From Mesonia mobilis DSM 19841 (GTDB taxonomy: Bacteria; Bacteroidota; Bacteroidia; Flavobacteriales; Flavobacteriaceae), in NCBI RefSeq assembly GCF_000423405.1, contig NZ_AUHX01000001.1:434001-498000 (forward strand): a stretch of DNA of 64,000 nucleotides, given 5' to 3'. The position numbers were made by a program, and so were the translations under genes. The notes below the pieces were generated by a model. It saw nothing but the letters and a program-made list of their open reading frames with translations, made no database searches and was not told the origin of the DNA. Shown here in pieces: positions 21,376-39,654 of the stretch (positions within the stretch are counted from its first letter, which is position 1; every line of letters starts with the position of its first letter).

Positions 21376-21662
21376 TAGACCACTATTCCTATCAGGTACG
21401 TAAAAATCCCAACTACCGCTCCCGCAATAAGAACAAAGATGAGTACCCGGGTGATCCCCTTTTTAAGATCTGCATTTTCTCCAAAAAAGTGACCGGCGTT
21501 AAACAGGAAACCTACTAAAAAAATGACTCCAAGGATAATGGGAAAGATCGCTCGAATAGTATCTGAAATATCATTCACGGAATTTTCAATTCCTCCGATT
21601 TGTGCCCAGGCCGATCCTGTGAAAAAGAGTAATAAAAGTGAAACATAAATAGCTTTTTTCAT
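21375..21662 (-). CDS. traE: Conjugative transposon protein TraE (DUF4134, pilin-like)
   Basis: The 95-residue product has a signal peptide (MKKAIYVSLLLLFFTGSAWA) followed by two membrane helices, the layout of VirB2-like pilin subunits. The mature part contains GGIENSVNDISDTIRAIFPIILGV. It is the first gene of the tra operon, so the operon promoter should lie in 21663-21911. I see no further gene in that gap. Confidence 0.88.
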   Translation of the reverse strand: MKKAIYVSLLLLFFTGSAWAQIGGIENSVNDISDTIRAIFPIILGVIFLVGFLFNAGHFFGENADLKKGITRVLIFVLIAGAVVGIFTYLIGIVV

Positions 21663-21911
21663 ATCAAATAAGATTTTTGTGATACTTGAAATTGATAAAG
21701 TAAAGCTATGATATTCAGCTCTTTATTATGCTAAACGTCAGGAATCTGTGAATAACATTCTATTTGCTATTCATTGTTGTAATATGGTTCTAAATCATCT
21801 TAAAATAAATGATCGTTTTGAAAATTGCTGTTGATAACCGAAAAAGTGATAAGGATAATCATCTCTAAAAACGTCAATTTTCTATCCAAAAGTCTTGGAG
21901 GCTCTTCATAT

Positions 21912-22580: not shown

Positions 22581-23122
22581 AAGGGTTCATCATAATTTTT
22601 ATCATCACTAGTTCTAAGGTTGTCCTGATTCGGGACATCTAGGTTAAGTTTTTCAGTGTTTTCATTTTCCGAAAAATTTAAATTTTCAAAAATTTCTGTT
22701 TTTTTATTGTTTTTAATGTTTTCTATAGTTTGTATATGTTTTATTATAGATACCAATGCTTGTTCACTACTTGTCCTATTTTTAGTATGGTTGAGGTCTA
22801 ATACTTGTTCACTACTTGTCCCAAAATTGAACATCTTAATTTTGCTACCCTTCCAAGGATTATGGGAAGGCATATAAACCAAATAGCTCCAATGGCTCAA
22901 TTCTCTGATGCATCGATGGTAAGTGGATTTAGAACCAATTTTAGCCAGGTTCATCACTTCCTGGCGATTAATAAAAAATTCACTGCTATAGTAGTTGACA
23001 TTCCAAAATTGAAAAAGGGCAAGATACAGACTGATGTGCGAAGGATTTAGTCGATTATCTCGAGAAAAAAGCGCAAATACGCGATTGAGATGTTTGATGT
23101 AATTTACTGCTTCCAAAATCAA
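22577..23122 (-). CDS. Helix-turn-helix replication or regulatory protein of the element
   Basis: The 181-residue product resembles the winged-helix proteins that sit between the excisionase-like gene and the DnaC-like gene in Bacteroidota ICEs. The N-terminal half (FSRDNRLNPSHISLYLALFQFWN ... NRQEVMNLAKIGSKSTYHRCIRELSHW) is a DnaD/RepA-type winged helix. The C-terminal half is asparagine- and glutamate-rich and poorly conserved. The start is TTG at 23122, overlapping the stop of the upstream gene (TTGA), which suggests translational coupling. Role in replication is inferred from context. Confidence 0.7.
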   Translation of the reverse strand: MILEAVNYIKHLNRVFALFSRDNRLNPSHISLYLALFQFWNVNYYSSEFFINRQEVMNLAKIGSKSTYHRCIRELSHWSYLVYMPSHNPWKGSKIKMFNFGTSSEQVLDLNHTKNRTSSEQALVSIIKHIQTIENIKNNKKTEIFENLNFSENENTEKLNLDVPNQDNLRTSDDKNYDEPL

Positions 23123-23397
23123 AAGGTATGATGTATTCTATTTTTCTCTAAAACAGCATTGATTTCTTCCTCATCATAATAGAGAACACCTCCAATTTTA
23201 GTATAAGGTAGCGTGCCGTTAATTCGTAAATTCTGAAGGGTGCCGGGGGAAATTCCTAAAAGTTCACGAACTTCTTTTGACCGTAACCATTTCTTCGAAG
23301 TAGTTGAGTATTGTTTTAATAGTAATTCTTGGATCTCCTCAAGAAGTTCAAGTTTAAATTCTCGAAGATCATCGGTGGTAATGATAGTTGCTGACAT
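23119..23397 (-). CDS. Excisionase-like helix-turn-helix protein
   Basis: This 92-residue protein contains a MerR/HTH_17-type motif: WLRSKEVRELLGISPGTLQNLRINGTLPYTKIGGVLYYDEEEINAVL. Known relatives bind DNA near attachment sites and promote excision (Xis, RdfM-like) or act as regulators. It heads a three-gene operon with the winged-helix and DnaC-like genes. Confidence 0.85.
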   Translation of the reverse strand: MSATIITTDDLREFKLELLEEIQELLLKQYSTTSKKWLRSKEVRELLGISPGTLQNLRINGTLPYTKIGGVLYYDEEEINAVLEKNRIHHTF

Positions 23398-23612
23398 AAT
23401 ATTTGTTTTTAAATTAAAAAAGCGAGTACCCTCCTACTATCACCTATTCAGGTACTCACTTAAATTTGGCTGATGAATTTGCTCTATTCATAGAACGGTT
23501 CCATCAACCGTTGATTTGACTTTCATTACAAATTTTGAATCTTTTTACGGGTTCTTATCCCAAGATGAATCGCAGTTACGACAAACTTTAACATCCTCTC
23601 TAAATAGATACA

Positions 23613-23644
23613 AAAAAGCCCAAATACGATGATTTAGGCTTTAA
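23613..23644 (-). terminator. Terminator downstream of rteC
   Basis: On the minus strand the stem AAAGCC.AAAT/ATTT.GGCTTT is followed by a T-run (23612-23617 on the plus strand is A-rich). It lies about 60 bases past the rteC stop. The rest of 23398-23701 shows no gene. Confidence 0.65.
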
Positions 23645-23701
23645 TTTTAATCCTCTAGGGATTTTTCTATCAAAAAATTTAAGAAGTAGCTCGAATCGTA
23701 A

Positions 23702-24553
23702 CTACGTTTTTTCGAAGCCTTCTTCTTTATCCATTTTATGTTGAAGATGAATAATCAATTCATCAAGAAATTTAGTTCTACTTCCCCTCCTTTCCTTTAT
23801 CTCTGAATAGGTTTTATAAATTTGATCAAGTTTGATATTGAAAAAATCTTCAAAGCTGGAAGTAATCATTTTCAAATCAGCTGCTCCGTGATTCACACAT
23901 TGATCGGAATAGAGCGCATAAATGAGTTCAATCAGTGCTGTCTTGGAAGCTGTCCATACTAAAACTTGATGCTTTTTCTGTTCATATTTCTTGGTTTGCC
24001 CCGGCTTTAGTTCTTCTAAAGATTCCCTTAAGTAATGTATGAATTGATACATGGCTTTTACTTTTGCCCAAAGCATATCGTGGGAGGTTGAAAACTCCGG
24101 AAACTGATAGTAATCGGTAAGTGGGCTAACCGGAAATTTTGAGCGATGGGTACGTGAAAAAAACTGATGGTCTAGGTAACTATAATCCATTTCCATATAG
24201 TAAACGAAATCGGAATTACGATAAAAGAATTTATTGATTTTTTTAAGTTCTTTTTCCAAAAAATTAATTTTATACTGCCTTCCCGCTTTAGGTTTCTGTA
24301 ATTCGCAGGTACGCATTTCCGTAAAAAGAATCAATTGACTCATAGGAATGGATTTTAAATGCTTGAAGAAGTGGATCTCACCGGGAATGGTTTCAAAATC
24401 AAATTCTTCTACTAAACTTTTAAGTTTGGCTAGCGTTTTATTACATAAACTAATCCCTGAAACCATATATTTAATAGGTTCCAATTTTTTTTGCTGAAGT
24501 CCTTGAAGTTTGTATTCAAACTCTTTTATAACTTTTTCATAATCTTTCATCAT
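23702..24553 (-). CDS. rteC: RteC-domain regulator
   Basis: The 283-residue protein matches RteC: LQKPKAGRQYKINFLEKELKKINKFFYRNSDFVYYM, YLDHQFFSRTHR, and the C-terminal winged-helix-like part VWTASKTALIELIYALYSDQCVNHGAADLKMI. In CTnDOT, RteC activates the excision operon. Here it lies upstream of the Xis-like operon on the same strand, which fits such a role. RteA and RteB are not seen. The start has two consecutive ATG codons. Confidence 0.88.
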   Translation of the reverse strand: MMKDYEKVIKEFEYKLQGLQQKKLEPIKYMVSGISLCNKTLAKLKSLVEEFDFETIPGEIHFFKHLKSIPMSQLILFTEMRTCELQKPKAGRQYKINFLEKELKKINKFFYRNSDFVYYMEMDYSYLDHQFFSRTHRSKFPVSPLTDYYQFPEFSTSHDMLWAKVKAMYQFIHYLRESLEELKPGQTKKYEQKKHQVLVWTASKTALIELIYALYSDQCVNHGAADLKMITSSFEDFFNIKLDQIYKTYSEIKERRGSRTKFLDELIIHLQHKMDKEEGFEKT

Positions 24554-24739: not shown

Positions 24740-25114
24740 ATGAATTCCTGGGAGAGTGAATATGTGAAATTTGATATTAAGGATGGTATTATTTACTGTA
24801 AATATAAAGCATTCCAGACTTTTAACCTTAAAATCGCTCAGCAAGTAGTTGAGGATCGTTTATATTTTCAAGGAGAAAGAGTTTTACCTGCCTTTTGTGA
24901 TATACGCAAAATGGTATTTCCTGACGAACAGGCAAGACACTACTTAGCTATTCATGGCTCCTTGGGATTAAAGGCGGTCGCTTATTTCATTTCTAAAGAT
25001 AGCGAAAGAAGTCTTATTCAATTTTTCATTAAAGTCAATAAACCACTTATTCCTACAAAAGTTTTTTCAGAGCAGGATGAAGCCTTAGATTTTTTAAAAC
25101 TTTATAAACGATGA
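24740..25114 (+). CDS. STAS/SpoIIAA-like small protein upstream of AraC regulator
   Basis: This 124-residue protein has alternating strands and helices (YVKFDIKDGIIYCKYKAF, ERVLPAFCDIRKMVFPDEQARHYLA, LGLKAVAYFISKDSERSLIQFF) like STAS-type proteins found beside regulators in Bacteroidota. No catalytic motif is seen. Its stop overlaps the start of the AraC gene by 4 bases (ATGA), so the pair is translationally coupled and likely works as one regulatory unit. The family call is by appearance and is uncertain. Confidence 0.65.
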   Translation: MNSWESEYVKFDIKDGIIYCKYKAFQTFNLKIAQQVVEDRLYFQGERVLPAFCDIRKMVFPDEQARHYLAIHGSLGLKAVAYFISKDSERSLIQFFIKVNKPLIPTKVFSEQDEALDFLKLYKR

Positions 25115-26022
25115 GTAAGATCAAAAAAAAGAACCTAGAGAAATTATATGAGGCTATTATGCAGCTTGCCCAAGGAAATTTTGCCTATAGAATAAATGAA
25201 TCAGATCTTCAGGAAGATGGTTCAGATTTAGCGATGATGCTGAATATGCTAGGCGAAGAATTAAGTAATTTTTTTATCAGTTCGAACTCGTTTGGTGAGA
25301 AAAATATGACTGACCCCTATACCTTCGTACTTGATAATCAATTGAATATTAAAGCTATTAATTGTCGATTCTCTCATTTATTTAATAGTCATAATGAGAT
25401 CCTTAACAAGGAAATATCGCAATTTTTAACCAAAAGCTCTGCATTAGAACTTCAGCATTTGGTGAATTCTAATTTTCACACGGGACAGACTTTTACTCCG
25501 GTTAAAATTATCTTGACTTTTATGACTAAACACAATGAGGAATTGAAAGTTTGGGGATATTGTCATTTGATTGTCAATCAACGCGAACGATTCTATTTTT
25601 TTAGACTATTACCCTTAAAATTTATAAAAGTTTCTCAAATTGAACCTGATAATTCTGAAGCGGAAGATAAAAAATTGAAAAAGAAACAGGTACAAAATGA
25701 TATTCTCAAAATTAGAGAGGTACATCAGTATATATTAGATAATCTGCATCAGAGCTTGCCGCCATTGCAAATCATTGCTCGAAGTGCCAATCTAAACGAA
25801 TATAAACTAAAGAAAGGATTCAAAACCATTTATGGAATTACTGTATTTAAATTTCATTTAGAAAAGCGTCTTGAAATGTCTAAAACATTAATTGAAAGTA
25901 CCCAACTTCCCTTAAAATCAATATCCTTTCAATTTGGTTTTAAAGACTACTCCCATTTTTTAAAAGCATTCAAAAAGAAATATGGAAAATCCCCTAAAAA
26001 ATTCAGAAATGGTAATAATTAA
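25111..26022 (+). CDS. AraC-family transcription regulator with N-terminal PAS-like domain
   Basis: The 303-residue protein ends in a two-helix-turn-helix AraC domain (about 205-300: LPPLQIIARSANLNEYKLKKGFKTIYGITVFKF, then LKSISFQFGFKDYSHFLKAFKKKYGKSPKKFR). The N-terminal half has a PAS-like fold (DPYTFVLDNQLNIKAINCRFSHLF). It is followed by MauE/DoxX-like and DUF6520-like genes and probably controls them or the divergent SusC operon. No receiver domain is present. Confidence 0.88.
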   Translation: MSKIKKKNLEKLYEAIMQLAQGNFAYRINESDLQEDGSDLAMMLNMLGEELSNFFISSNSFGEKNMTDPYTFVLDNQLNIKAINCRFSHLFNSHNEILNKEISQFLTKSSALELQHLVNSNFHTGQTFTPVKIILTFMTKHNEELKVWGYCHLIVNQRERFYFFRLLPLKFIKVSQIEPDNSEAEDKKLKKKQVQNDILKIREVHQYILDNLHQSLPPLQIIARSANLNEYKLKKGFKTIYGITVFKFHLEKRLEMSKTLIESTQLPLKSISFQFGFKDYSHFLKAFKKKYGKSPKKFRNGNN

Positions 26023-26130
26023 ATTTAGTGTGTTTTAGGGTTAAACAATAATAAATCCTTTATAGACAGTTTTTTATCCCTTAAGAACATTTTCGCTTCC
26101 TTAACTTTAACCTCATTAAAAGAAAAGGTT

Positions 26131-26553
26131 ATGGAAACCAAAAAGTACATCTTAAAAATTTCTACACTTATAGTAGGAATATTATTTCTCTATACCGGTT
26201 TAAAAAAATTATGGGAAGGGGATCTTTTCTACCATACCTTACTGAATTCAACCAATATCGAAAACCAGCTTATTATTGAAGGATTAAGTTTGGGGATTCC
26301 TCTCGTGGAAATAACCACCTCTTTTACTTTTTTGTTTTATCCTAAGAAAAATATTGGTCTGTATATCTCTTTGATAGTATTGATAGTCTATAGCGGATAT
26401 TTGATCAACCTCTTATTCTTTCAAGAAGAAATCCCCTGTACCTGTAGGACTGTTCTACCGCTACTGGGTTGGTATGGTCACTTATACTTTACACTAAGCT
26501 TATTTGTATTTCTAATAGGTTTATTACAGTTACGAGGTTTAAAAATAAAATAG
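26131..26553 (+). CDS. MauE/DoxX-like membrane protein
   Basis: This 140-residue protein has four membrane helices (about 7-24, 47-67, 75-95, 112-133). The cysteine pair in EEIPCTCRTVLPLLGW is typical of MauE-type redox membrane proteins. MauE relatives support disulfide formation or reduction of periplasmic partners. Here the partner may be the small cysteine-containing protein encoded next. It is separated from the AraC gene by 108 bases with no gene. Confidence 0.8.
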   Translation: METKKYILKISTLIVGILFLYTGLKKLWEGDLFYHTLLNSTNIENQLIIEGLSLGIPLVEITTSFTFLFYPKKNIGLYISLIVLIVYSGYLINLLFFQEEIPCTCRTVLPLLGWYGHLYFTLSLFVFLIGLLQLRGLKIK

Positions 26554-26558
26554 TATTA

Positions 26559-26585
26559 CCTGTTTTGTTGCGCAACAAAACCAGG
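26559..26585 (+). promoter_or_regulatory. Intercistronic hairpin between the MauE-like and DUF6520-like genes
   Basis: CCTG-TTTTGTT pairs with AACAAAA-C-CAGG around a GCGC loop (one bulged C). No T-run follows; a purine-rich AGGAGG follows directly at 26583. It may stabilise or process the downstream mRNA so that the small secreted protein is made in excess. Confidence 0.5.
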
Positions 26586-26644
26586 AGGAAGCTGAACACC
26601 TGTATAAAATAGTAGGCATATTATTCATTTAAAAATTCAATATT

Positions 26645-26914
26645 ATGAAAAGTAAATTTTTAATTCCGTTGTTAGCGGTAATCTTTACAACCGCGATGTC
26701 CTTTACTACAGCTAGAACTGTAGTAAATCCGGATTTTGATTTTATCTCTACCGATGCCGGAGTAGTTCGTATTTCTGAAATGCAATGCGGAGCAGGAACA
26801 TTAAATTGTAGAGTTCAATTAGAGCCTAATGGAACAGAATATCAAGTTTTTGATGATGAAGACTTAACTGTTGCCAAAAATACGAATAACCCTAATCCTA
26901 TTGAGTTATTCTAA
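26645..26914 (+). CDS. Small secreted DUF6520-like protein
   Basis: The 89-residue product has a clear signal peptide (MKSKFLIPLLAVIFTTAMSFTTARTV) and a mature part of about 60 residues with two cysteines (QCGAGTLNC). The layout and N-terminus match the DUF6520 family of tiny exported Bacteroidota proteins, whose role is unknown. It sits between a redox-type membrane protein and a terminator and faces the SusC-SusD-peptidase operon. A secreted peptide, signal or substrate are all possible. Confidence 0.7.
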   Translation: MKSKFLIPLLAVIFTTAMSFTTARTVVNPDFDFISTDAGVVRISEMQCGAGTLNCRVQLEPNGTEYQVFDDEDLTVAKNTNNPNPIELF

Positions 26915-26935
26915 TTATTCCATAATCTAAAAAGG

Positions 26936-26964
26936 AGCACTGGAGAAAATCTCCAGTGCTTTTA
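26936..26964 (+). terminator. Terminator between the DUF6520-like and M16 genes
   Basis: An 11-bp perfect stem (AGCACTGGAGA/TCTCCAGTGCT) with an AAA loop is followed by TTTTATTA. It ends the plus-strand unit and lies just before the convergent M16 gene end at 26980. Confidence 0.9.
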
Positions 26965-26979
26965 TTATTTACTATAGTT

Positions 26980-29802
26980 TTACAAGAATATAAATTCCAT
27001 TTTACTATTTTGTTCGATAAAATTAGTCATATCTTTTAAGAAATCTTCTAGTTTTAGATCAGTAAGGTAATTTTTATGTTGTTGGATACTGATCAAAGGT
27101 TTTTGATATCTGTAATAGTTATATAATTTTTTTTCTCTTTCATTCAAGAACTCCTGTTTAAAATCAATTCCTTGAATTATTCGCTTCTTCTCCTGATGGA
27201 ATATATCTTCGGATAAATCTTCAGAAATATTTTTTAATATAAAATCTAATTCCTTTCGTAACTCTTTAATTTTACTATCCTGTGAATTGACTTGAATTTC
27301 AAACTCAAAACGATTCATAGCCTCGTTAAACTTTCCGACTGTTGCATAATCATATAAAGGAAACCCTTTTTTATATCTTAATTCAGTAATTTTAGCCTTT
27401 ATGATTCTAGCCAACAGCTCTAATTGAGTTTCCAAATGAAAAATTTGATTACTACTAACACTATATTTATTAGGCATTAAGAAACTCACTACTAAGCTGG
27501 TTCTGTTATTTTGATTATCATTTTGAGGAAATATTACTGGTTCCCCTTGAGTTAATGATGTACTCTCTATTAGATTTCTTACATTTTGAAAATGTAATTT
27601 TTCTTCTGTAGGAATACTTCCAAGATACTTATTTATCAAGGCTAAATTTTTACTGATATCCTGCAACCCGGTGATTAAAAATGTAAATCGTTTAGCATTA
27701 GAAAACAATTTATTGTAGATATCATAGGCATTGTCAAAATCGGTTTTGAATATACCCTGATATCGTTGCCTACCGATAGGGTTTTTAGTAAAGTCACCCG
27801 TTAAATTACGGATTGTATCTTTTAAACTAGCGGAACCTAAACTAAACGGTGGGTTAGAAAATTTTTGCAATTGAAGAAATTTCCAATCCTTATAAGCTTC
27901 CTTATCTTTATTCACTTGAGTAAAGTACAAGGAAGTCAACTTCAACATTAATTCCAAATCCTTAGTTTCGGATACTGCTTTAATACCACTCTCTTGATAA
28001 GAGATATAGGGTTGTGGTAATTTCCATAAACTTGTCGTTGACAGATAGTCTTTTAGTTCAAATTTATTTAAACAAGCTATTCCACTATTATTAATAATAT
28101 CAGGGCTGTTAATGGCAGAGTAATAATTTTTTGGTGAGAAACTAGCTGCTCCATAACCGGTAAAGCCGTGCAGTCGAGTTACATCATCCTGAACTTGTTG
28201 GTGATCTATAATTACCTTTATACCATTAGCTAAGGTATATTCACCAACTTTCAATTTTTTATCATATCGGTAATCAATGGGCACACTTTTTTGATTAGAA
28301 TTTACCTCAATTTTTAAGCATTCAATATCTTTTTTGGCCCATCTTTCTTTACGTTTTGGAACTGGTGAAGTTTCTATCCATTTTTTTAAAGTTAATGAAT
28401 CAATTTTAGCAGTTGAAATAATCCCTAAATCATCGGGATATAATTTTAGGTTCCGATGAATAAATGAATTAAAATCTGAAAGTGATGTTTTTTTTAAATT
28501 TTCAGTCAGAAATTTCTCTTTTTCTTCCGGTAAAGCCTCATTGGCTACAAAGTGTCTGCGTATTTCCTTTATCCAGTAGAAATCATCCTTATTTACAGAA
28601 GCCCTCGATGGTGGCATGAGACTATTCATAATTTTTTTATATTCATCTTCTTCAATACCATTTTGTTTTAAATTTTTAATAATACCGATGACCTGTTGAA
28701 GCGCTTCTTGTTCGTAGTTATTTAGAATTGAAAGTTTTAAATGCAGACCCATCGGATACATCTCATTTTCAGAATAACTAATGACTGCCTGATATTTAGG
28801 ATTATAAACTTGTAAAGCCTCTTGTATTCTGTGATTTAGAATTTGTTGCAGCATACCCCAATATTGAAGTCTTGAGAGCCCTAAGTAATTACCTAAGTTA
28901 TGATAGGTAATTGAATCTCTATAAAATAAAGTCAACTCTGATTTCTCAATAACAAATTCTTGAGTTGATGGTTGTTTCTGAATGGACTTGAAGTTAGGTT
29001 TTGACTTAAAAAATAATGAGTCTTTATCCAGAAGTTCCCGATTTCCCTTCTCATTTTTCAGACTTTTAAAAAATTCTTTTAACTTTTCTTCAATCTTTTC
29101 AGGTTGTGTTATAGCACCTGCAACAACTACAGCCATCAGTTCGGGACGGTACCAATCCCTATAATAGCGTCTCACTACCTCTGCATCGAAAGAATTATAA
29201 TGTGCTATTACTTCTGAGTAATCGTGGATTGACGGAAATAAATACGAATCTAATTTAGTCTCTAAATAGAACTGTGGCAAGTTATCCCCGTTACGGTAGT
29301 AAATCTCTTCCTTGATGGCTCCTCTTTCACTATCTATTGCTTTTGAAGACATATCTGTATGAACAGCGATATCTTTAAAAAACTGAAAACCTGTGTCTAA
29401 TCCTTTTGGATTTGTATTGGGAATATCAAAAGAGTATTCGGTATACTTAAATGACGTATTGGCAAATTGATCTTTGCGTGTCATCCCTAATTGATTTAAA
29501 AGCTGTTCATCATCTCTTATCCCATTTCTAAATGCTAAATGTTCAAGCATGTGAGCGATGTCCAGTTGATCTCCATCCTGCTTATCAAAACCTGCCTTTA
29601 GATAAAGTCTCATATAAATTTTTGAAGACTCATTTTCCGTGGGTTTAATGTAATACGTTAACCCATTCTTTAGTTTCCCATAAGTGATCGATTGATCCAA
29701 AGCTAAATTACCTAAATCTCCCTGCTCATTTTCTTGACCAACACTTTTAGCTATATTGAAAAAACTAATCATCAACAAAATTAAAACTCTTAACTGTGTC
29801 AT
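26980..29802 (-). CDS. M16-family (insulinase/pitrilysin-like) zinc peptidase, secreted
   Basis: About 940 residues from the ATG at 29802. The N-terminus is a signal peptide (MTQLRVLILLMISFFNIAKSVG). The inverted zinc motif HxxEH is H84-M-L-E87-H88 in DIAHMLEHLAFRNG, with a downstream ERGAIKEE segment that can give the third ligand. Length fits a four-domain M16 protein. The frame stays open upstream for 37 codons into the SusD gene, but the ATG at 29802 lies 2 bases after the SusD stop and gives a clean signal peptide. It is the third gene of the SusC-SusD-M16 operon and probably degrades imported or captured peptides in the periplasm. Confidence 0.92.
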   Translation of the reverse strand: MTQLRVLILLMISFFNIAKSVGQENEQGDLGNLALDQSITYGKLKNGLTYYIKPTENESSKIYMRLYLKAGFDKQDGDQLDIAHMLEHLAFRNGIRDDEQLLNQLGMTRKDQFANTSFKYTEYSFDIPNTNPKGLDTGFQFFKDIAVHTDMSSKAIDSERGAIKEEIYYRNGDNLPQFYLETKLDSYLFPSIHDYSEVIAHYNSFDAEVVRRYYRDWYRPELMAVVVAGAITQPEKIEEKLKEFFKSLKNEKGNRELLDKDSLFFKSKPNFKSIQKQPSTQEFVIEKSELTLFYRDSITYHNLGNYLGLSRLQYWGMLQQILNHRIQEALQVYNPKYQAVISYSENEMYPMGLHLKLSILNNYEQEALQQVIGIIKNLKQNGIEEDEYKKIMNSLMPPSRASVNKDDFYWIKEIRRHFVANEALPEEKEKFLTENLKKTSLSDFNSFIHRNLKLYPDDLGIISTAKIDSLTLKKWIETSPVPKRKERWAKKDIECLKIEVNSNQKSVPIDYRYDKKLKVGEYTLANGIKVIIDHQQVQDDVTRLHGFTGYGAASFSPKNYYSAINSPDIINNSGIACLNKFELKDYLSTTSLWKLPQPYISYQESGIKAVSETKDLELMLKLTSLYFTQVNKDKEAYKDWKFLQLQKFSNPPFSLGSASLKDTIRNLTGDFTKNPIGRQRYQGIFKTDFDNAYDIYNKLFSNAKRFTFLITGLQDISKNLALINKYLGSIPTEEKLHFQNVRNLIESTSLTQGEPVIFPQNDNQNNRTSLVVSFLMPNKYSVSSNQIFHLETQLELLARIIKAKITELRYKKGFPLYDYATVGKFNEAMNRFEFEIQVNSQDSKIKELRKELDFILKNISEDLSEDIFHQEKKRIIQGIDFKQEFLNEREKKLYNYYRYQKPLISIQQHKNYLTDLKLEDFLKDMTNFIEQNSKMEFIFL

Positions 29803-29803
29803 T

Positions 29804-31186
29804 TTAATAGCCCGGGTTTTGTAGTAGATTTGGATTGGTGATAAGATCATTTTCAGGAATAGGATATAGCATATCATTAGCTTCCCAATTAGAATCCCCC
29901 TCAAAAAAATCATCGATGTTCCCTGTGCGTTTAAGATCGAGCCAACGATGCCCCCATTCTGTAAATAGTTCTACTTTTCTTTCCTCAAGAATTTCCTCAA
30001 GCAATGTTTGTTGCGTTATTGCCGGATCAGATGTTGAGAGCAGATCAATACCTGCTCTATTTTTGATCATATTGAGGTCTGCTATCGCTCCCTGTAAATC
30101 ATTTTGTCTTGCTCGGGCTTCTGCTCTAATTAAATATTGCTCTGCTAATCGCAGAACCATCGAATATTCCGTTAGGTTATCGATACTACTTCTATCTTTA
30201 TATTTATGGGCATAGTAATTTTCTGTACCACTATGATACCCCACCCAATGCTGATAGCGCAAATCATTAGTGTCTAAATTGCTTACAAATTCATTGGATA
30301 AAGAGACTCTCGTGAGCGAACTCAATACCGGATGAAACAAGAATGTCCCCCCTTCATTCGTATAGGTCATAGAGCTTCCTGATCCTCTAGGGGTTATTTG
30401 CCAGATCGCTTCATCACTATTGGCAAGAAAAACATCATCTAAGTCTTCCTCAAGTGCATAACTATCAGAATTATTTATGAGCTGAGTACTATAAAAATCT
30501 GCTTCTTGCCAATTTTCAAGGTATACATACACTCTAGCCATTAATGCTGAAGCGGTATAGTAATTCGCATAAATGCGATCATTCTCTCTATAGCTCATAG
30601 GCAATTGAGCTAAGGCCAGCTCTAAATCTAAAAGGATCTGTTCGTAGACCGCTTCTGTTGAACTATTTTCTAAACTGGCATTAAGTTGATAGTTTGTTGT
30701 TAATGTTAAAGGAACCTCACCATAGAGATTGACCAAATAAAAAAAAGAAAAAGCGCGTATAAACCTAACTTCACCCTCTAGGTGTTGAGCAAGTTCTTCA
30801 TTGATTGCTGATGAATTCCGGATTCCTTCTAGTGCAGAATTACACATATATATGATATTATAAGCACTCGACCATAATGCCGTATTTCTGATGTTATCGG
30901 GCATTAAAGCATGATCTTTAAACTCTATATAATCTAAATTGGTTACCCGTAAATTTGTAAGCGTATGGGCAGATAAACCTGCTAAGACGGTTACACTATT
31001 TTCCCCTCCTGAGCTAAATGCCCGTGGATAAAGCTGATTGTAAATACCTTTAACAGCACTTAAGGCAGTTTCATCACTATCAAAAACTACTTCACTGGTC
31101 ACGATCGTATTGGGCGGATCGATCTCTACAAAATCTTCACAAGCCCATAAGGATAGGCAGAGAAGTGATATGATTATATATTTCAT
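29804..31186 (-). CDS. RagB/SusD-family outer-membrane lipoprotein
   Basis: The 460-residue product has a lipoprotein signal ending at C16 (LCLSLWACEDFVEIDPP) and the family features: an N-terminal TPR region, RFIRAFSFFYLVNLYGEVPL, and the C-terminal RKVELFTEWGHRWLDLKRTG followed by YPIPENDLITNPNLLQNPGY. SusD-like proteins cap the SusC transporter and bind the ligand at the cell surface. A peptide ligand is plausible given the adjacent peptidase. It follows susC by 17 bases. Confidence 0.95.
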   Translation of the reverse strand: MKYIIISLLCLSLWACEDFVEIDPPNTIVTSEVVFDSDETALSAVKGIYNQLYPRAFSSGGENSVTVLAGLSAHTLTNLRVTNLDYIEFKDHALMPDNIRNTALWSSAYNIIYMCNSALEGIRNSSAINEELAQHLEGEVRFIRAFSFFYLVNLYGEVPLTLTTNYQLNASLENSSTEAVYEQILLDLELALAQLPMSYRENDRIYANYYTASALMARVYVYLENWQEADFYSTQLINNSDSYALEEDLDDVFLANSDEAIWQITPRGSGSSMTYTNEGGTFLFHPVLSSLTRVSLSNEFVSNLDTNDLRYQHWVGYHSGTENYYAHKYKDRSSIDNLTEYSMVLRLAEQYLIRAEARARQNDLQGAIADLNMIKNRAGIDLLSTSDPAITQQTLLEEILEERKVELFTEWGHRWLDLKRTGNIDDFFEGDSNWEANDMLYPIPENDLITNPNLLQNPGY

Positions 31187-31203
31187 AAATAAAAATTTTA
31201 GTA

Positions 31204-34161
31204 TTAAAAATTAAGTTCGACCCCGGCAGATATTGTTCTTAAGGCTGAAAAGCTTCTTCCTCCATTAGGCATAGCCGGGTCTAAGCCCTCATAAGGAGTC
31301 CAAGTAAACAGGTTTTGTGCATTGGCAAAAACCGTAAAGCCTGAAATGCCCACTACTGGGAGAAAGCGCTCGGGTAATTGATAAGACAGGCTAAGTGTTT
31401 TTAACCGAAGAAAAGAAGCATCAGAATAGGGCAAAGCAGTATTTAAGTAATTAGAATAGGCAATCGAAGATTCGTAAGATTGAGAAATGGTTTGAAACTG
31501 CCCTTGCCCCTCTAATGCCCGGCTAACAATACTTCTTTGATTTCCTAAGCTTCCGGCATCTACCATTGAAATTGTACCTTCCTGCTTTACATATTGAAAT
31601 AAGAATTGCAATGAAAAGTCATGAACTTTTAAGGTATTCGAAAGACCTCCAAAATACTGACGCCAATTATTTTTAATTAAAGTACGATCCTGATAATCTA
31701 TTTGATCATCACCATTCACATCTCTCACCTGATAAAGCCCTGTTTCATCATCAATCCCTTCATAATGATAGCGTAGACCAATATTTAAAGGCTCACCGAT
31801 TCGATAGGTATTTGCATAAGAAGATTGTTGTAAATTGGGATAACTAATTAACTTATTCTCCGGAATCGTAAGATTGAATGAAGTTCGCCAACTAAAATTA
31901 TCTTGCTGAAAGTTTAAACTAGAAAATTCTATTTCCCATCCTTTATTTTCGACCGTGGCTCCTAAATTGGCCTGAACGGTAGTAAAGCCAGTAATACTAG
32001 GCAAAGGGTAACCCACCAATTGATTGGATGACCTGTTTTGATACCTGCTTACTCCAACATTGATACGATCTTTCAGGAACCCAAGCTGGATCCCTACTTC
32101 TAATTTTTTATTCACCTCCCACGAATAATCGGGATTAGCTAAGCCTATCGGATAAAGGCCTCCGGGACCGGAAGTGGCCTCATAGGCATCTAAATAACCG
32201 TAATCTCCAATTTGATCATTTCCCGTGCTTCCATAACTTGCTCTCAACTTCCCAAAGGATAGAAACTTTAAAGAATCCATAAAGCTTTCTTCAGAAAAGA
32301 TCCAAGCGGCACCTACGGCACCGAAATTGGCAAATTGTTTACCAGGACCAAAACGAGAAGAGCCATCTCTTCGACCGGTTAGGTTTAGGTAATATTTCTT
32401 TTGCCAATTATAAGCCAGTCTCCCAAAAATAGCAGCATAACGATATTCCTGAGTTCTATAGGATACTGAATTTACGCGGTCGGCAGCGGTTAAATTTCCG
32501 ATCAGGCTTTCGGTCACGTAACCTTCACCATATAAACCTCTTCCAAAATCTATACTTTTTTGAAAAGTAGCTCCTACAATAGCACTTATCGTTCCTTTAC
32601 TTATTTTTTTATTGTAGTTTATTTGTGGTTCAATGATCCAAGACGCTCTTTCTTGATCTAAATGTGTCGAGCGATGTTCTAAACTTTCCCAACTGGACGG
32701 GTTATAAGACTTTTTGGGTCTTTTTACCAATTCTCTACTGGTAAAGAAAGTATACCCTAAGCTTGTCTTTACTTCTAAGCCTTCCAAAGGACTGTAAGAA
32801 AGGCCTAAATTTGAAATACTGTTGTTAGATCGGGTTTGGCTACGGTTATAATAGCCCGATAATGGATTATTTAATCCTGCTTCACCCCACTCTTCCCAGT
32901 TTAGTTCTCCATTGGTTAAAAATAGTGAAGGTGCATTTGGGCTTAAATTAAAAGCCGTATTGGTAAGGTCTAAATACCCGACCAGTTCATTTTGGGTAAC
33001 CCCATAATTTGTTTTAAAATTGAGGGTAAACTTTTGATCTTTGGAATGATGATTTAATTGAGCATTACCAGTAAACCGCTCATAGTTATAATCTCCTCTA
33101 TAAATAGTACCCTGATTAAAATAAGCTCCTCCAACTCTAAAACTTGTTGTTTGATTACCTCCCGATACGCTTATATTGGCATCGGTAACAGGTGCATTCC
33201 CCCCAAAAAACTCTTCCTGCCAATCGGTATTTCTTTCCTGATCCCAGAGTACCAGATCGTAGGCATTGTATTGATCCGGCTCTACCCCATCATTTTCGAA
33301 AGCTCTTCGTCTTATTTGAAGATACTGAGAGGTATTGAGCATATCAATACGATTAGGAAAAGTAGAGATTCCTGTATATACGCGTGCTTGCACTTCTATT
33401 TTTGCCGATTTTCCTTTTTTTGTAGTAATCAACACTACCCCATTAGCTCCTCTTGAGCCATAAATGGCGGTTGCATCTGCATCCTTAAGTACTTCAATGC
33501 TCTCTATATTAGAAAGGTTAAGGGTACTTAACGGATCGATGCCTGAAGAACTGAGGTTGCTGTTGCTCTCTAAAGGCGTTGAATTAATGGGCATCCCATC
33601 GATGATGTACAAGGGGTAATTTCCTTCTGTTCGTAAACTGTTTTGCCCGCGTATTCGAATTGTCGGCGCTGATCCCGGTAAGTTACCTCCAGAGTTTACT
33701 TCTACTCCTGCCATTCTACCCTGCAGGGCTTCTAAAGGGCTTACCAAAGGTTGTAACTCTATTTCTTCGGCGGTAACTTTGGCAATATTCCCCGTGCGTT
33801 CCCGCTCGGTAGTGGTATAATAACCGGCATTAATCACGAGATCACCCAACGAGTTTTCTTCTTCTTGTAACGTAATATTGATTTGTGCTTGATTGGCGAC
33901 CGCAATCGTTTGCGTTTGATAGCCTAGATAAGCGAATACCAAGCTGTCTTGTGCTTGTGTGTCAAGCTCATATTCTCCATCAAAATTAGTGGTTGTACCA
34001 CCGGGTTTATTTTTAAAGGTAATATTTACCCCGGGGATGGGCATCTTATCGGTGTTGGTTACGGTACCCGATATTTGCTGTTGCCCCGTGCAAGGAATAG
34101 CCCAGCTGCTTAGCACTAAGAAAATACTTAGCCTAAGGCAGGATCTGAATAAAAATTTCAT
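31204..34161 (-). CDS. SusC/RagA-family TonB-linked outer-membrane transporter
   Basis: The 985-residue product has a signal peptide (to about residue 27), a carboxypeptidase-regulatory-like beta-sandwich (ISGTVTNTDKMPIPGVNITF, about 30-110), a TonB plug (SIEVLKDADATAIYGSRGANGVVLITTKKG) and a large beta-barrel ending in AGVELNF. It imports ligand captured by SusD using TonB energy. It heads the operon with SusD and the M16 peptidase. The upstream gap 34162-34872 holds the elements listed separately. Confidence 0.95.
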   Translation of the reverse strand: MKFLFRSCLRLSIFLVLSSWAIPCTGQQQISGTVTNTDKMPIPGVNITFKNKPGGTTTNFDGEYELDTQAQDSLVFAYLGYQTQTIAVANQAQINITLQEEENSLGDLVINAGYYTTTERERTGNIAKVTAEEIELQPLVSPLEALQGRMAGVEVNSGGNLPGSAPTIRIRGQNSLRTEGNYPLYIIDGMPINSTPLESNSNLSSSGIDPLSTLNLSNIESIEVLKDADATAIYGSRGANGVVLITTKKGKSAKIEVQARVYTGISTFPNRIDMLNTSQYLQIRRRAFENDGVEPDQYNAYDLVLWDQERNTDWQEEFFGGNAPVTDANISVSGGNQTTSFRVGGAYFNQGTIYRGDYNYERFTGNAQLNHHSKDQKFTLNFKTNYGVTQNELVGYLDLTNTAFNLSPNAPSLFLTNGELNWEEWGEAGLNNPLSGYYNRSQTRSNNSISNLGLSYSPLEGLEVKTSLGYTFFTSRELVKRPKKSYNPSSWESLEHRSTHLDQERASWIIEPQINYNKKISKGTISAIVGATFQKSIDFGRGLYGEGYVTESLIGNLTAADRVNSVSYRTQEYRYAAIFGRLAYNWQKKYYLNLTGRRDGSSRFGPGKQFANFGAVGAAWIFSEESFMDSLKFLSFGKLRASYGSTGNDQIGDYGYLDAYEATSGPGGLYPIGLANPDYSWEVNKKLEVGIQLGFLKDRINVGVSRYQNRSSNQLVGYPLPSITGFTTVQANLGATVENKGWEIEFSSLNFQQDNFSWRTSFNLTIPENKLISYPNLQQSSYANTYRIGEPLNIGLRYHYEGIDDETGLYQVRDVNGDDQIDYQDRTLIKNNWRQYFGGLSNTLKVHDFSLQFLFQYVKQEGTISMVDAGSLGNQRSIVSRALEGQGQFQTISQSYESSIAYSNYLNTALPYSDASFLRLKTLSLSYQLPERFLPVVGISGFTVFANAQNLFTWTPYEGLDPAMPNGGRSFSALRTISAGVELNF

Positions 34162-34207
34162 ATTTTTGAAATGTTATTAGTTAAATATTTGAGTTTAGTT
34201 AATACAC

Positions 34208-34250
34208 GCCTTCTCTGTATCGCCAAAGTATAGAGAGGGCTTTTTTATGG
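34208..34250 (+). terminator. Plus-strand terminator antisense to the susC leader
   Basis: GCCTTCTCT (34208-34216) pairs with AGAGAGGGC (34232-34240; one G-T wobble) and is followed by TTTTTTAT. No plus-strand gene precedes it. On the plus strand TATTTTTG at 34161-34168 fits the TAnnTTTG promoter element, so a short antisense RNA may end here. Compare Bacteroides antisense RNAs over susC leaders. Confidence 0.5.
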
Positions 34251-34609
34251 ATATAATTTTACCTCATAAGCTTTTGTTTTAAACAGTTTACCCGACCCGG
34301 GCGCAGGTACTCTTCTTGCCATTACACATACCTATAATTCTTACTGCGATTGATTGAAATGAAACCACTCTGTAAATGTGTTTTGATTGGTTTTTTATTA
34401 TAAAAACCGTGCACATTCCATGGGCTTATCTATGGAGTATCTAGGAAGTATCCCAGACTTTTCCTTACGAATAAAGTTTTACAATTGATTTTTAAAAGAT
34501 GATTACTGTAACAATAAACACAGGTTTTGTAATTCAGCTCTGTTAAGTTCTAACTTATTTAGCTTCATTAACTCCCTTATGGCCTGTCTTATTAAAAAAA
34601 GAAAAAGGC

Positions 34610-34740
34610 GCAGGTCTCAACTTATCGATCTGAGGCACTGGTATACCTGTACACGAATAAGTGAGCCCACGCCGCGGTCGTGAGCTAAGTTACTTATCCT
34701 CTCGTGTACTTAAAAATTACCAGTTTTCAGATCGAGACTC
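34610..34740 (-). ncRNA. Candidate structured RNA or leader element upstream of the susC operon
   Basis: Four nested stems align on one axis: 34626-34633/34727-34734 (8 bp), 34637-34643/34718-34724 (7 bp), 34649-34656/34702-34709 (8 bp) and 34657-34662/34692-34697 (6 bp), with a small CACG/CGTG apical stem. On the minus strand the fold is followed by a T-rich tract (34590-34606). It could be a small RNA, an attenuator for susC, or a DNA cruciform site. No known family is recognised. Confidence 0.4.
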
Positions 34741-34812
34741 AAAGCAATAGCTTCTAATATTTTCATATTTGAAGAATTGCAAATATATGTATGTAAGACA
34801 AATATAGCGAAA

Positions 34813-34848
34813 AAATATTTAGGATACTTATAGGTATCCTAAATATTT
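34813..34848. promoter_or_regulatory. 15-bp inverted repeat, probable operator of the adjacent XRE repressor
   Basis: AAATATTTAGGATAC (34813-34827) and GTATCCTAAATATTT (34834-34848) are perfect inverted repeats around TTATAG, 25 bases before the XRE gene start. The core TAGGATAC..GTATCCTA looks like a dimer binding site for an autoregulated helix-turn-helix repressor. It can also fold as a hairpin but lacks a T-run. Confidence 0.6.
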
Positions 34849-34872: not shown

Positions 34873-35166
34873 ATGAAAAAGTTAAACTTTAAAGATGAAA
34901 ATAATGCTTTGGGATACAGAATAAGAGAACTGAGAGAAAAAATACTAAATCCTAAAACAAATAAACCAATTTCTCAAGAAGAATTAAGTCTAAGAACTGG
35001 TAATGCAAAAAAAACCATAGGTGAAATAGAAAGGGGTAATACAAATCCTCGTTTTAGTACATTACTTCAAATATCTAAAGAATTAAATGTAACTATACGT
35101 GAACTATTGGATTTTGATATGATCAAATATATTCGGCTAGCCAATAAATTTAAAAAAGATAAATAG
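34873..35166 (+). CDS. XRE-family helix-turn-helix regulator
   Basis: The 97-residue protein is a Cro/CI-type domain: LGYRIRELREK, ISQEELSLRTGNAKKTIGEIERGNTNPRFSTLLQISKELNVTIRELLDF. The palindrome directly upstream suggests autoregulation. It precedes the large DGQHR gene and the DUF2971 gene on the same strand and lies opposite the dnd operon, so it may control the defence locus. Confidence 0.88.
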   Translation: MKKLNFKDENNALGYRIRELREKILNPKTNKPISQEELSLRTGNAKKTIGEIERGNTNPRFSTLLQISKELNVTIRELLDFDMIKYIRLANKFKKDK

Positions 35167-35257: not shown

Positions 35258-37477
35258 ATGTCTCTAAATATTAAACCTAGACAACAGAATGATCACTCTA
35301 ATCCCTATTATTGCATTCATTCCTTACAAAAATTAAATTCTGAATTTGACACAAATGTATTTACCACCTCTATACCCATTTCTCAATTACTGAAAAATAG
35401 AGATATTTTATTAGTTGATGATCTGAAGGCTGATGCTAAATGGGGGATGAATAAAATTATACAGAGAAATATTTCTGACAAAAGAGTAAAAGAAATTAAG
35501 AATGAATATTTAGATACTAATCATAGACAAATAAAATTTTTTCCAGCTATTACTATTATCCTTCTACCTAAAACTAGTGGTGAACCGAGCCAAAGTTTTA
35601 ATAATTCTCAGAATAGTTTTGATGATATTGCTGGAATAGATGTCATTAAAGAATATGGTGAAACAGACTTATATTTATATGATCATCCTATTACTTTAAA
35701 GTGGGATAAAAACAAAATTTCCGCCTTAGTCATTGATGGGCAGCATAGAGTTAAAGCTATCCGAAGCTTCTATGACAGTAAAAATGAAGCTCACTATGAT
35801 GGGATAAGTATACCAGCAACTTTCGTTGTCTTCAAAAATTCACCCAATCTTGACTTAATACAAGCTACAAGAGCCTTATTCATTGATGTTAACAATACGC
35901 CAAGATTAGTATCAGAAGAAAAGCTAATATTTATAGATGACAGAAATATACATCGTAGAATTACAGCTAAGATTTTCGGTTCTAATGATCCAGGGGATGA
36001 CAGTTCTGATTACTATCAGAAAATGCTTCAACAAGAAGATTTTCTATTAAATGAAGAGAATATTCTGAGCCGTTATTTAGTAGAAGAATCCGGTAAAGAT
36101 GACGAAGAATCACGAGGTTTCTTATCTAATCATAGAAATCTATTTCCTTGGGAAGTAAGTAATATTATGACAATTCATAGGAATATAATTGGAAATATAC
36201 TTTTACGATTTAAAGATGTTGATAAAACTAGAGATATTAGAAGCTTATGCCATGAGTTAAATAATTCAATTCTAGAAGAAATTGAGAAAAAGGAATCAAC
36301 GGAAGAACTTACAGACAAGGAAAGAGAAGTTATTGTCGACCGCTTAGCTAAATCAGGATTGTCTAATGAAGAAATTGATATATTCAAAAATTTAATGGAT
36401 ATCAAATACCGGAATTTAGAAGAAATTCGCGATGTTGAGTCTGAATTTTTGATTGGGACCGCTGCAGATGATGAAGAAGAAAAAGACAGAAAGGATTTTG
36501 TGAAACTACTTTTAAATATTTATAATCAAGATTGTAGTAAAGATTCGGCATTTGAGTTTAGTTCAAATTCTATAACAAATTTATTACTCGAAAAATGCTC
36601 TATATATATTTCATTACCAACCTACGTATTTAATAACTTATGGTTTACTAAGAATATCAAGAATTCAATTTTAGATCATGGTCAAAATGATAGAAAACTA
36701 ATTTTCAATTTTATTTTAGCTACTCATGAAACTTTAAAAGTTCAAAATTCACTTAGAAGACGAAATGACAAAGTTGATAAACAAGTAAAAAACTTTATCA
36801 AACAATATGAGATAAGTGAAACCTCCCGTGTTAAAACTCTTACAAATTGGGCAAAAAGTTTAGCTAAAAGTCAAAATGGGAATGTTTTAAGAACTGTTGT
36901 TGGTCAAGAAATGCTATTTATCTATTTGATGAAACAAAGTGGTAAACTGAGAGATATAAATATTGAAAATGAACTAGAGATAATAAATACACTAGGTGAT
37001 ATAAATTTTTTTAATAGTGAATTTTTATTAAAAATAAAATTTCCTGAAGCTCTAGATTGTTCTGTACTTGACTTTCAAATTTGGTCCGAAATAATTATGA
37101 ATGGAAATAAAATGAAACCTGGAATTACTAATGCAATGAAAGGGGCTGACTTTATTGACATGGTTAAAAATAAAATTTCAAATAGAATTAATGGTGGTTC
37201 TAAATTGCGATCGTTGGATAGGTTGCAAAAATCCTATGGGGTTGCAGTAACAAAAAAAATTGCAGAGGGTGATAATGAAATTTTATTTAAAATGTACGAA
37301 GTAGCTCAGGACTATTTTCAACTTGATAAATATTTAAATAATAATGAAATTGAAATAATTACAGAACATTTTGCCAATGCAGAACAATTAACTGATCGTT
37401 CAAAAAATGTACTTAGTAAACTATATGGGGGATATGCCTTTGAGCAAGTGGTTGAGTGTTATAAAGATAAAATATGA
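35258..37477 (+). CDS. Large DGQHR-domain protein (DndB-related)
   Basis: The 739-residue protein carries the DGQHR signature at residues 160-164 (VIDGQHRVKAIRSF), followed by DVNNTPRLVSEEK. DGQHR proteins include DndB, which regulates or modulates DNA phosphorothioation. This one is about twice the DndB length, with a long C-terminal half of unknown fold that is rich in lysine and asparagine. It overlaps the DUF2971 gene by 4 bases (ATGA) and lies beside a complete dndCDE set, so a role in the same system or in a linked nuclease step is likely but unproven. Confidence 0.75.
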   Translation: MSLNIKPRQQNDHSNPYYCIHSLQKLNSEFDTNVFTTSIPISQLLKNRDILLVDDLKADAKWGMNKIIQRNISDKRVKEIKNEYLDTNHRQIKFFPAITIILLPKTSGEPSQSFNNSQNSFDDIAGIDVIKEYGETDLYLYDHPITLKWDKNKISALVIDGQHRVKAIRSFYDSKNEAHYDGISIPATFVVFKNSPNLDLIQATRALFIDVNNTPRLVSEEKLIFIDDRNIHRRITAKIFGSNDPGDDSSDYYQKMLQQEDFLLNEENILSRYLVEESGKDDEESRGFLSNHRNLFPWEVSNIMTIHRNIIGNILLRFKDVDKTRDIRSLCHELNNSILEEIEKKESTEELTDKEREVIVDRLAKSGLSNEEIDIFKNLMDIKYRNLEEIRDVESEFLIGTAADDEEEKDRKDFVKLLLNIYNQDCSKDSAFEFSSNSITNLLLEKCSIYISLPTYVFNNLWFTKNIKNSILDHGQNDRKLIFNFILATHETLKVQNSLRRRNDKVDKQVKNFIKQYEISETSRVKTLTNWAKSLAKSQNGNVLRTVVGQEMLFIYLMKQSGKLRDINIENELEIINTLGDINFFNSEFLLKIKFPEALDCSVLDFQIWSEIIMNGNKMKPGITNAMKGADFIDMVKNKISNRINGGSKLRSLDRLQKSYGVAVTKKIAEGDNEILFKMYEVAQDYFQLDKYLNNNEIEIITEHFANAEQLTDRSKNVLSKLYGGYAFEQVVECYKDKI

Positions 37478-39653: not shown

Positions 39654-39654
39654 C

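What the first reader, a model, noticed from the sequence alone, without database searches (positions are those of the whole stretch)
24740..34161. AraC - MauE-like - DUF6520-like / SusC-SusD-M16 cassette on an ICE
A regulator pair, a redox-type membrane protein, a 60-residue exported protein with two cysteines and a TonB transporter plus zinc peptidase stand together as cargo. A coherent reading: the small protein is exported, its cysteines handled by the MauE-like protein, and peptide material taken up by SusCD and degraded by M16. This could be a peptide signalling, competition or scavenging unit. I recall similar groupings in other Bacteroidota elements but know of no assigned function.
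Basis: inference. Interest (0 to 1): 0.65.

Follow-up and report, generated by a model that had tools for sequence, protein, structure and literature searches.

The report
Secreted peptide with its own importer
A mobile DNA element in a Bacteroidota bacterium carries a small exported protein next to an outer-membrane importer and a protease, and in several relatives the mature part of that protein and the importer have been exchanged together as one set, which suggests that the cell makes a private peptide and takes it back up.

Summary
On an ICE (RteC, TraG, TraM), DUF7793-AraC-MauE-DUF6520 runs head-on into M16-SusD-SusC. Of 83 DUF6520 loci examined, 79 have SusC, 76 MauE, 77 a recognised enzyme in the M16 slot: M16 (38), S9 peptidase (18), met-zincin (12), thioredoxin-like (7), unscanned (2). 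All 83 peptides have two or more cysteines. Main new result: in three pairs of close relatives the mature peptide, M16, SusD and the SusC barrel differ while MauE and the signal peptide stay, with the break at the signal/mature junction. Mature-peptide distance follows SusC (r 0.61) more than adjacent MauE (0.22; 0.40 outside the genus). I read a private secreted peptide, retrieved by a matched SusCD and opened in the periplasm; linkage alone is not excluded, and carrier, signal or toxin is open. Upstream of SusC lies a covarying ~185-nt element (66 of 83 loci; no Rfam hit). Its core matches guides of a dCas12f-sigmaE system encoded in the same genome (14/16, preceding G), so the importer operon may be under RNA-guided transcription; yet most genomes with the element show no dCas12f. 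No expression, ligand or export data exist.

The parts
23702..24553 (-). RteC, ICE regulator (PF09357); the cassette sits on its 5' side
   Evidence: Pfam 200.7 bits; RteC beside 50 of 83 DUF6520 loci
24740..25114 (+). DUF7793 protein; STAS/SpoIIAA-like fold only a weak suggestion
   Evidence: PF25056 E 7.8e-37; AF2 best model 75.6 pLDDT but the other four 40-50; Foldseek E 0.008 or worse, STAS entries among the list but not on top
25111..26022 (+). AraC-type regulator
   Evidence: HTH_18 E 5.2e-18; 53 of 83 loci
26131..26553 (+). MauE/DoxX-like membrane protein, C103-x-C105
   Evidence: PF07291; both Cys invariant in 76 of 76
26645..26710 (+). signal-peptide part of DUF6520, kept with MauE in the chimaeric pairs
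26711..26914 (+). mature DUF6520 peptide (Cys48, Cys55), highly variable, travels with SusCD/M16
   Evidence: PF20130; AF2 small beta fold
26980..29802 (-). M16 zinc peptidase, slot enzyme; export inferred from the N-terminus
   Evidence: PF05193, PF00675; HMLEH, motif in 32 of 32 M16 aligned; PDB relatives 9ldy (E 2.7e-40) and PqqL (E 4e-15)
29804..31186 (-). SusD/RagB-like lipoprotein
   Evidence: PF07980, PF14322; SLWAC at the N-terminus
31204..34161 (-). SusC/RagA TonB-dependent transporter; first ~330 aa kept and the rest exchanged in two of three chimaeric pairs
   Evidence: TIGR04056 724.6 bits; PDB 8aa4 E 1.7e-86, RagA E 3e-64
34602..34801 (-). conserved structured element upstream of SusC, same direction as SusC
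   Evidence: 66 of 83 cassettes, 0 of 38 control rteC loci; 49 pairs, 20 with compensatory change
34657..34672 (-). candidate dCas12f-sigmaE target GCGTGGGCTCACTTAT, preceding base G
   Evidence: best hit in the 64-kb window of an own-genome guide, 14 of 16; guide read in L177
34813..34848 (.). palindrome just upstream of the element (operator or terminator)
   Evidence: sequence; long palindromes enriched there in relatives
34873..35166 (+). XRE-type HTH gene divergent from the element
   Evidence: PF01381; a small divergent ORF beside 72 of 76 elements

Best explanation
The cassette is a private peptide-and-importer system carried by ICEs. Half one makes the peptide: DUF6520 is sent through Sec and its cysteines are paired with the help of MauE (inferred). 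The mature peptide reaches the cell surface by a route not encoded here (inferred). Half two takes it back: a SusCD pair specific for that peptide imports it, and an enzyme taken to be periplasmic, here an M16 peptidase and elsewhere an S9 peptidase, a met-zincin or a thioredoxin-like protein, cuts or reduces it (inferred from the families). Shown here: the conserved convergent layout, the conserved cysteines, the interchangeable slot enzyme, and the joint exchange of mature peptide, M16, SusD and most of SusC. Most likely use: a diffusible carrier or self-recognition peptide kept private by matched receptors, as with pyoverdine and its receptors or agr pherotypes (both recalled).
For: Layout in 83 loci: SusC 79, SusD 79, MauE 76, slot enzyme 77; median DUF6520-to-slot gap 71 bp. 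Chimaeras (protein identity): window or L032 against L035 have MauE 91-96%, signal 100%, mature 27%, M16 24%, SusD 49%, SusC N-part 85-86%, rest 56%. L043 against L045: RteC 98, AraC 95, MauE 95, signal 100, mature 43, M16 31, SusD 50, SusC-N 90, rest 61. L064 against L068, one genome: MauE 97, signal 96, mature 28, M16 23, SusD 55, SusC-N 58, rest 51. The reverse occurs among L035, L042, L049, L050: MauE 27-42%, mature 71-87%, M16 72-86%, SusD 78-86%. DNA identity falls between about nt 55 and 85 of DUF6520 in the three pairs. Mantel r of mature distance, 74 loci: SusC 0.61, SusD 0.56, MauE 0.22; partial with MauE given SusD 0.10. SusC segments of 110 aa 0.39-0.59, the N-terminal extension 0.24 (73 loci). 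Cysteines in the mature part: 2 in 51, 4 in 31, 5 in 1 of 83; S9 loci 18 of 18 have 4, M16 loci 36 of 38 have 2.
Against: Linkage could give much of this: recombination at the conserved signal-coding stretch would move everything downstream as one block whether or not the parts interact. In the 57 loci outside the genus MauE also tracks the peptide (r 0.40, SusC 0.61). In the 39 loci with all genes, the mature part tracks even RteC at 0.39, more than MauE (0.21), and the signal part tracks SusC at 0.46 in 74 loci. Plug segments of SusC (0.50-0.53) score as high as the barrel. Nearest neighbours by MauE predict the slot class in 54 of 72 loci, by mature peptide in 61. L069/L077 shows no break at the junction, and in L064/L068 the SusC N-part is not kept. 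No route across the outer membrane is seen. Three loci lack SusC and SusD (one of them near a contig end), six lack a recognised slot enzyme. Several loci come from one genome, so they are not all independent. No ligand, expression or secretion data.
Confidence: 0.5

Rival explanations
1. Two neighbours without a shared ligand: SusCD-M16 is a general peptide-scavenging operon like RagAB or Fus, and DUF6520/MauE has another job; they only travel together.
For: SusC resembles known SusC homologues and RagA; M16 resembles PqqL; TonB-receptor plus protease clusters are widespread in Proteobacteria (PMC6793856, section 6 read); RteC, not part of the unit, also tracks the peptide at 0.39.
Against: The mature peptide, but not its own signal peptide or MauE, is exchanged with SusCD-M16 in three pairs; cysteine number goes with slot class.
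Confidence: 0.22
2. Peptide bacteriocin: DUF6520 is a secreted toxin that enters rivals through their SusCD; the slot enzyme destroys it in the producer.
For: Variable mature part behind a conserved leader, mobile element, joint exchange with a receptor.
Against: The producer keeps a full, matching importer, which would load it with its own toxin; no small immunity gene recurs in the layouts as far as I could see by eye; some slots hold thioredoxin-like proteins.
Confidence: 0.15
3. DUF6520 is a periplasmic inhibitor or substrate of the slot enzyme and never leaves the cell.
For: Only an N-terminal signal is visible; cysteine number goes with slot class.
Against: In two of three chimaeric pairs the exchanged SusC part is the barrel, together with SusD, while the N-terminus is kept; the N-terminal extension tracks the peptide least. 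The third pair, L064/L068, does not show this.
Confidence: 0.13

Closest known systems
Fus / YddB-PqqL protease-associated import (PMC6793856)
   Same: TonB-dependent transporter beside an M16 protease; the paper reports other proteases, or redox-active cytochrome c peroxidases, where FusC is absent (section 6 read)
   Different: SusCD pair instead of FusA; here a self-made small Cys protein is encoded next door and exchanged with the importer
RagAB of Porphyromonas gingivalis
   Same: SusCD-type pair, described as implicated in protein uptake (start of abstract of PMC11817032); SusC matches RagA at E 3e-64
   Different: The best PDB match of this SusC is another SusC homologue, 8aa4, E 1.7e-86; no partner peptide gene is known to me for RagAB (recalled)
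agr and comQXPA peptide signalling loci (recalled)
   Same: Conserved leader, variable mature peptide, specificity part of the receptor exchanged with it
   Different: Receptor here is a transporter, not a histidine kinase
Pyoverdine/FpvA and methanobactin/MbnT (recalled)
   Same: Secreted carrier with a matched TonB-dependent receptor
   Different: No modification enzymes seen; SusD and a peptidase are part of the matched set
dCas12f-sigmaE RNA-guided transcription (PDB 9n9c, 9n9q; mechanism recalled)
   Same: Own genome encodes dCas12f and a matching sigma factor and guides that match the element upstream of SusC
   Different: Most genomes with the element have no dCas12f hit, so the element must have another use too

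Membership tests
DUF6520 (PF20130) | score above gathering cut-off | tested here: met
   64.4 against 25.4 bits
M16 peptidase | HxxEH zinc motif | tested here: met
   HMLEH in the window protein; 32 of 32 M16 aligned
SusCD/RagAB transporter | SusC/RagA model plus SusD gene beside it | tested here: met
   TIGR04056 and PF07980
RagAB peptide importer | peptide as substrate | not testable with these tools
   sequence only
Fus-type import | TonB receptor and M16 protease as neighbours | tested here: met
Fus-type import | FusA-type receptor | not tested
   receptor scores as SusC/RagA; no direct comparison with FusA was run
Fus-type import | iron-protein substrate | not testable with these tools
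   sequence only
agr/comQXPA-type signalling | peptide and receptor exchanged together | tested here: met
   linkage not excluded
agr/comQXPA-type signalling | histidine kinase receptor in the locus | tested here: not met
   kinase in 10 and response regulator in 11 of 83 loci, none in the window cassette
CTnDOT-like ICE | RteC, TraG, TraM, coupling protein | tested here: met
CTnDOT-like ICE | relaxase | tested here: inconclusive
   DUF5712 present; its relaxase role is recalled
CTnDOT-like ICE | integrase and att sites | not tested
   not searched
dCas12f-sigmaE target | guide match with preceding G in the same genome | tested here: met
   14 of 16 at 34657-34672, first seven bases matched; second guide 13 of 16; the rest of the genome was not scanned with the guides
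dCas12f-sigmaE target | transcription of SusC depends on it | not testable with these tools
   needs expression data

The most novel reading that the evidence does not exclude
Flavobacterial ICEs carry a ribosomally made self-recognition or carrier peptide with a dedicated, co-diversifying SusCD importer and periplasmic opener, and the importer operon sits behind a structured RNA element that host-encoded dCas12f-sigmaE complexes target, so that a host RNA-guided transcription system decides when ICE-borne peptide uptake is switched on.
Probability: 0.22. Interest if true: 0.92.

Novelty: new variant of a known kind. Interest (0 to 1): 0.74.

Why it matters
Peptide-receptor pairs that diversify by exchange are classic in Gram-positive signalling and in siderophores (recalled). 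One built from a SusCD importer and spread by ICEs across Flavobacteriaceae would give a function to DUF6520 and to many SusCD-protease operons. The chimaeric pairs give ready-made swap experiments. The shared target element gives a concrete place to look for natural RNA-guided transcription of TonB-dependent transporters.

Tried and rejected
Rejected: that M16 defines the unit (38 of 83 loci). Rejected: AONS, DUF7793 and MauE as generic genes of rteC loci (0 of 38 control loci each). Rejected after test: the conserved element as a guide RNA with its guide just 3' of the scaffold. No target above chance was found in the own locus, upstream of SusC by a swap control or across the loci held, and none within 3 mismatches of the window's 24 bases elsewhere in the own genome. 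Conservation downstream of dcas12f then showed the likely true guide RNA, and the element turned out to match its guide.

Led nowhere: Rfam; Foldseek with the DUF6520 model, best E 1.5; paper searches for DUF6520 and NVEAL, no papers; for dCas12f and sigma factor, nothing relevant among the rows listed (20 of 1,417, 20 of 33, none). Searches listed six and one papers on ICEs and related terms; I saw the listings only, so they neither support nor exclude an earlier description of the cassette. A first RNAalifold structure of the element was replaced by a nested one tested; model R1 was still built on the first.

Limits: the 83 loci come mostly from the top of score-ordered lists, so weak DUF6520 hits are under-represented. 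Four duplicate loci (L038, L046, L047, L051) were dropped. ORFs were called by a simple script, so some missing SusD or MauE may be calling errors. Slot classes rest on home-made profiles; Pfam was run on representatives only, and the two c31 proteins were not scanned. E-values of R1 are rough. The element was not found in 17 of 83 cassettes. Guides: 7 of 11 dCas12f loci have a guide matching their own element at 13 or more of 16; L161, L162, L167 and L172 do not. In one search one measure, further pair types, was not above its shuffles (83 of 500), and helix 5 is paired in only 53% of cells. In the null windows overlapping the element were not excluded (maximum 16).
Full report
What is there. 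It carries part of an ICE with TraM, DUF4138 (TraN, recalled), TraG, RteC, a coupling protein and DUF5712. On the 5' side of rteC lie DUF7793, AraC, MauE and DUF6520 on the + strand, running head-on into M16, SusD and SusC on the - strand. A search of the own genome gave one DUF6520 match.

How common the unit is. At E up to 0.001 DUF6520 rings in 32 of 395 genomes of the phylum sample, 55 of 397 of the family sample and 12 of 16 of the genus. I fetched 80 regions, mostly from the upper part of those lists, had 5 named loci, and one more appeared among rteC loci. After dropping four duplicates and adding the window, 83 loci remained; several genomes contribute more than one. SusC is present in 79, SusD in 79, MauE in 76, MauE with SusC or SusD in 75, RteC in 50, DUF7793 in 46, AraC in 53. 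A TPR-kinase (10) and response regulator (11) stand in the regulator position in others. The gap between the converging genes has a median of 71 bp.

The slot enzyme. Next to DUF6520 on the opposite strand stands M16 in 38, an S9-type protein in 18, a DUF4953/DUF5117 met-zincin in 12, thioredoxin-like proteins of two kinds in 7 and an unscanned protein of about 1000 aa in 2; none was recognised in 6 (Pfam on representatives). Unrelated peptidases and redox proteins in one slot point to a shared task: opening something that has come in. The Fus paper reports the same kind of replacement, other proteases or redox-active cytochrome c peroxidases where FusC is absent (PMC6793856; outline and abstract seen, section 6 read).

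Cysteines. In 83 mature parts there are 2 cysteines in 51, 4 in 31 and 5 in 1. The count goes with the slot enzyme: four in all 18 S9 loci, two in 36 of 38 M16 loci, two in 9 of 12 met-zincin loci. MauE has an invariant C-x-C in 76 of 76. AlphaFold, with six sequences, gives the mature part a small beta fold with block means of 81-89 pLDDT; Foldseek found nothing convincing in the PDB, best E 1.5.

The mosaic. Distances between mature peptides follow SusC (Mantel r 0.61) and SusD (0.56) more than MauE (0.22), although in the window MauE is 91 bp away and SusC more than 4 kb (74 loci, 500 permutations). Within the 33 M16 loci the values are 0.54, 0.34 and 0.02. Against a clean picture: outside the genus MauE reaches 0.40, SusC 0.61 (57 loci); in the 39 loci that have all genes RteC reaches 0.39; the signal part tracks SusC at 0.46; and the slot class of the nearest neighbour agrees in 61 of 72 by mature peptide but also in 54 of 72 by MauE. 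SusC segments of 110 aa give 0.39-0.59, plug as high as barrel, except the N-terminal extension, 0.24. Close pairs show the events directly. The window and L035 are 94% identical in DNA from 26005 to 26718, ending at the signal/mature junction, and alike again (84.7%) from 33172, inside SusC. Protein values are in the evidence field. L043/L045 and L064/L068 repeat the junction; L069/L077 do not, and L064/L068 keep no SusC N-part. L035, L042, L049 and L050 show the reverse: similar peptide, M16 and SusD with unlike MauE. Larger blocks also move: window and L032 share 25763-34816 at 95.5% with no alignment upstream of it, window and L045 share 19273-24445 at 96.4% but carry different cassettes, and L033 (Mesonia oceanica) and L034 (Galbibacter orientalis) share 17.8 kb at 96.8%.

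Reading. In two of three pairs the exchanged parts are the outward-facing ones (SusC barrel, SusD) plus the peptide and the enzyme that would meet it after import. The kept parts are those any such peptide could share: signal, MauE, SusC N-terminus. This fits a peptide met at the cell surface by its own importer. It does not prove it, because a block that recombines at a conserved leader gives the same pattern without interaction. The step across the outer membrane to the outside is not explained.

The element upstream of SusC. A stretch at 34602-34801, model length 185, directed toward SusC, is present in 66 of 83 cassettes and 0 of 38 control rteC loci; all 67 hits with a SusC gene point toward it. 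The control regions reach only 20 kb from rteC, so a copy further off would be missed. It folds well below shuffles on either strand (z -4.2 and -4.1). On 44 sequences a nested structure of 49 pairs has 86% of cells paired and 20 pairs with compensatory change; slid versions reach 35-42% and 9-13. A competing helix before a U-run is also supported, so a two-state leader is possible. Rfam gave no match there. A small divergent ORF lies beside 72 of 76 elements and long palindromes are enriched in the 110 bp upstream (arm of 7 or more in 42, against 12 shuffled); the four such ORFs scanned are HTH proteins (window, L163, L174, L177).

Link to RNA-guided transcription. Model R1 finds the element in 68 of 397 family genomes, 55 of them at E below 1e-25 (counted from the list). 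Of 20 copies that I picked away from listed DUF6520 genes, 11 lie upstream of a dCas12f-like gene, 9 of them with an ORF of 256-270 aa between. Two of these ORFs were scanned and are ECF sigma factors (L161, L177). In the own genome, L177, the dCas12f protein matches PDB 9n9c, 'Nuclease-deactivated Cas12f', at E 4e-144 and the sigma factor matches 9n9q 'RpoE' at 3e-65. Downstream of dcas12f lies a conserved scaffold followed by a guide. In 7 of 11 such loci a guide matches the core of the element in the same locus at 13-16 of 16 with a preceding G. Of 63 cassette elements with a readable core, 51 match the consensus guide at 14 or more of 16 and all 63 have the G; random 185-nt windows average 9.2 with a 99th percentile of 12. 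The own genome has two dCas12f genes. The two guides read at one of them have the window element as best hit in the 64-kb window, 14 and 13 of 16; the whole genome was not scanned with them. By reading the two lists, 18 of 18 genomes with a dCas12f match longer than 230 aa (one of them broken) also have the element, and of two with short fragments one has; about 50 genomes, 37 of them with strong matches, have the element without a long dCas12f match (samples of 397 and 391). So the element has a use of its own, and dCas12f-sigmaE appears to aim at it where present. The system's published mechanism and its 5'-G rule are recalled; no paper on it was seen here.

Verdict. A real, widespread and mobile unit; a good but not linkage-proof case that mature peptide and importer form one specificity set; function among carrier, signal and toxin unresolved.

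Noticed in passing
window 34602-34801 (-): Conserved, covarying ~185-nt structured element with two competing helices and a U-run, no Rfam match; also found upstream of dCas12f genes.
   Followed up: yes
L177:7293-9196 and own genome C4:162219-163313: Own genome encodes dCas12f twice; at C3 a sigma gene precedes it and two scaffold copies with guides GCGTGGGTTAAYTTAT follow it. The C4 guide was not read.
   Followed up: partly
L036:5442-7847 and 40 other DUF6520 loci: An ~800-aa aminotransferase (alpha-oxoamine synthase-like) plus GNAT protein lies on the upstream side of the cassette, typically between rteC and DUF7793, in 41 of 83 cassettes and in 0 of 38 control rteC loci; absent in the window. 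Possibly a small-molecule signal synthase.
   Followed up: partly
L092:8643-9746, L078:10127-11251, L107:10195-11244: A protein of about 350-370 aa with an N-terminal hydrophobic stretch sits between MauE and DUF6520 in about ten loci; four scanned gave no Pfam match.
   Followed up: no
window 35258-44782: DndB/DGQHR-like proteins, a PAPS-reductase-like protein, an SMC-like ATPase and an Mrr endonuclease: looks like a Dnd-type DNA modification or defence region beside the cassette.
   Followed up: no
window 10273-10365 (+): TPP riboswitch (Rfam RF00059, 73.9 bits).
   Followed up: no
L163:7340-7675, L166:7332-7700, L173:12286-12642: Some elements away from DUF6520 and dCas12f are followed by proteins of 111-122 aa that look alike by eye; two scanned gave no Pfam match.
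   Followed up: no
L033 and L034: 17.8 kb with the cassette is 96.8% identical between Mesonia oceanica and Galbibacter orientalis: recent transfer between genera.
   Followed up: partly
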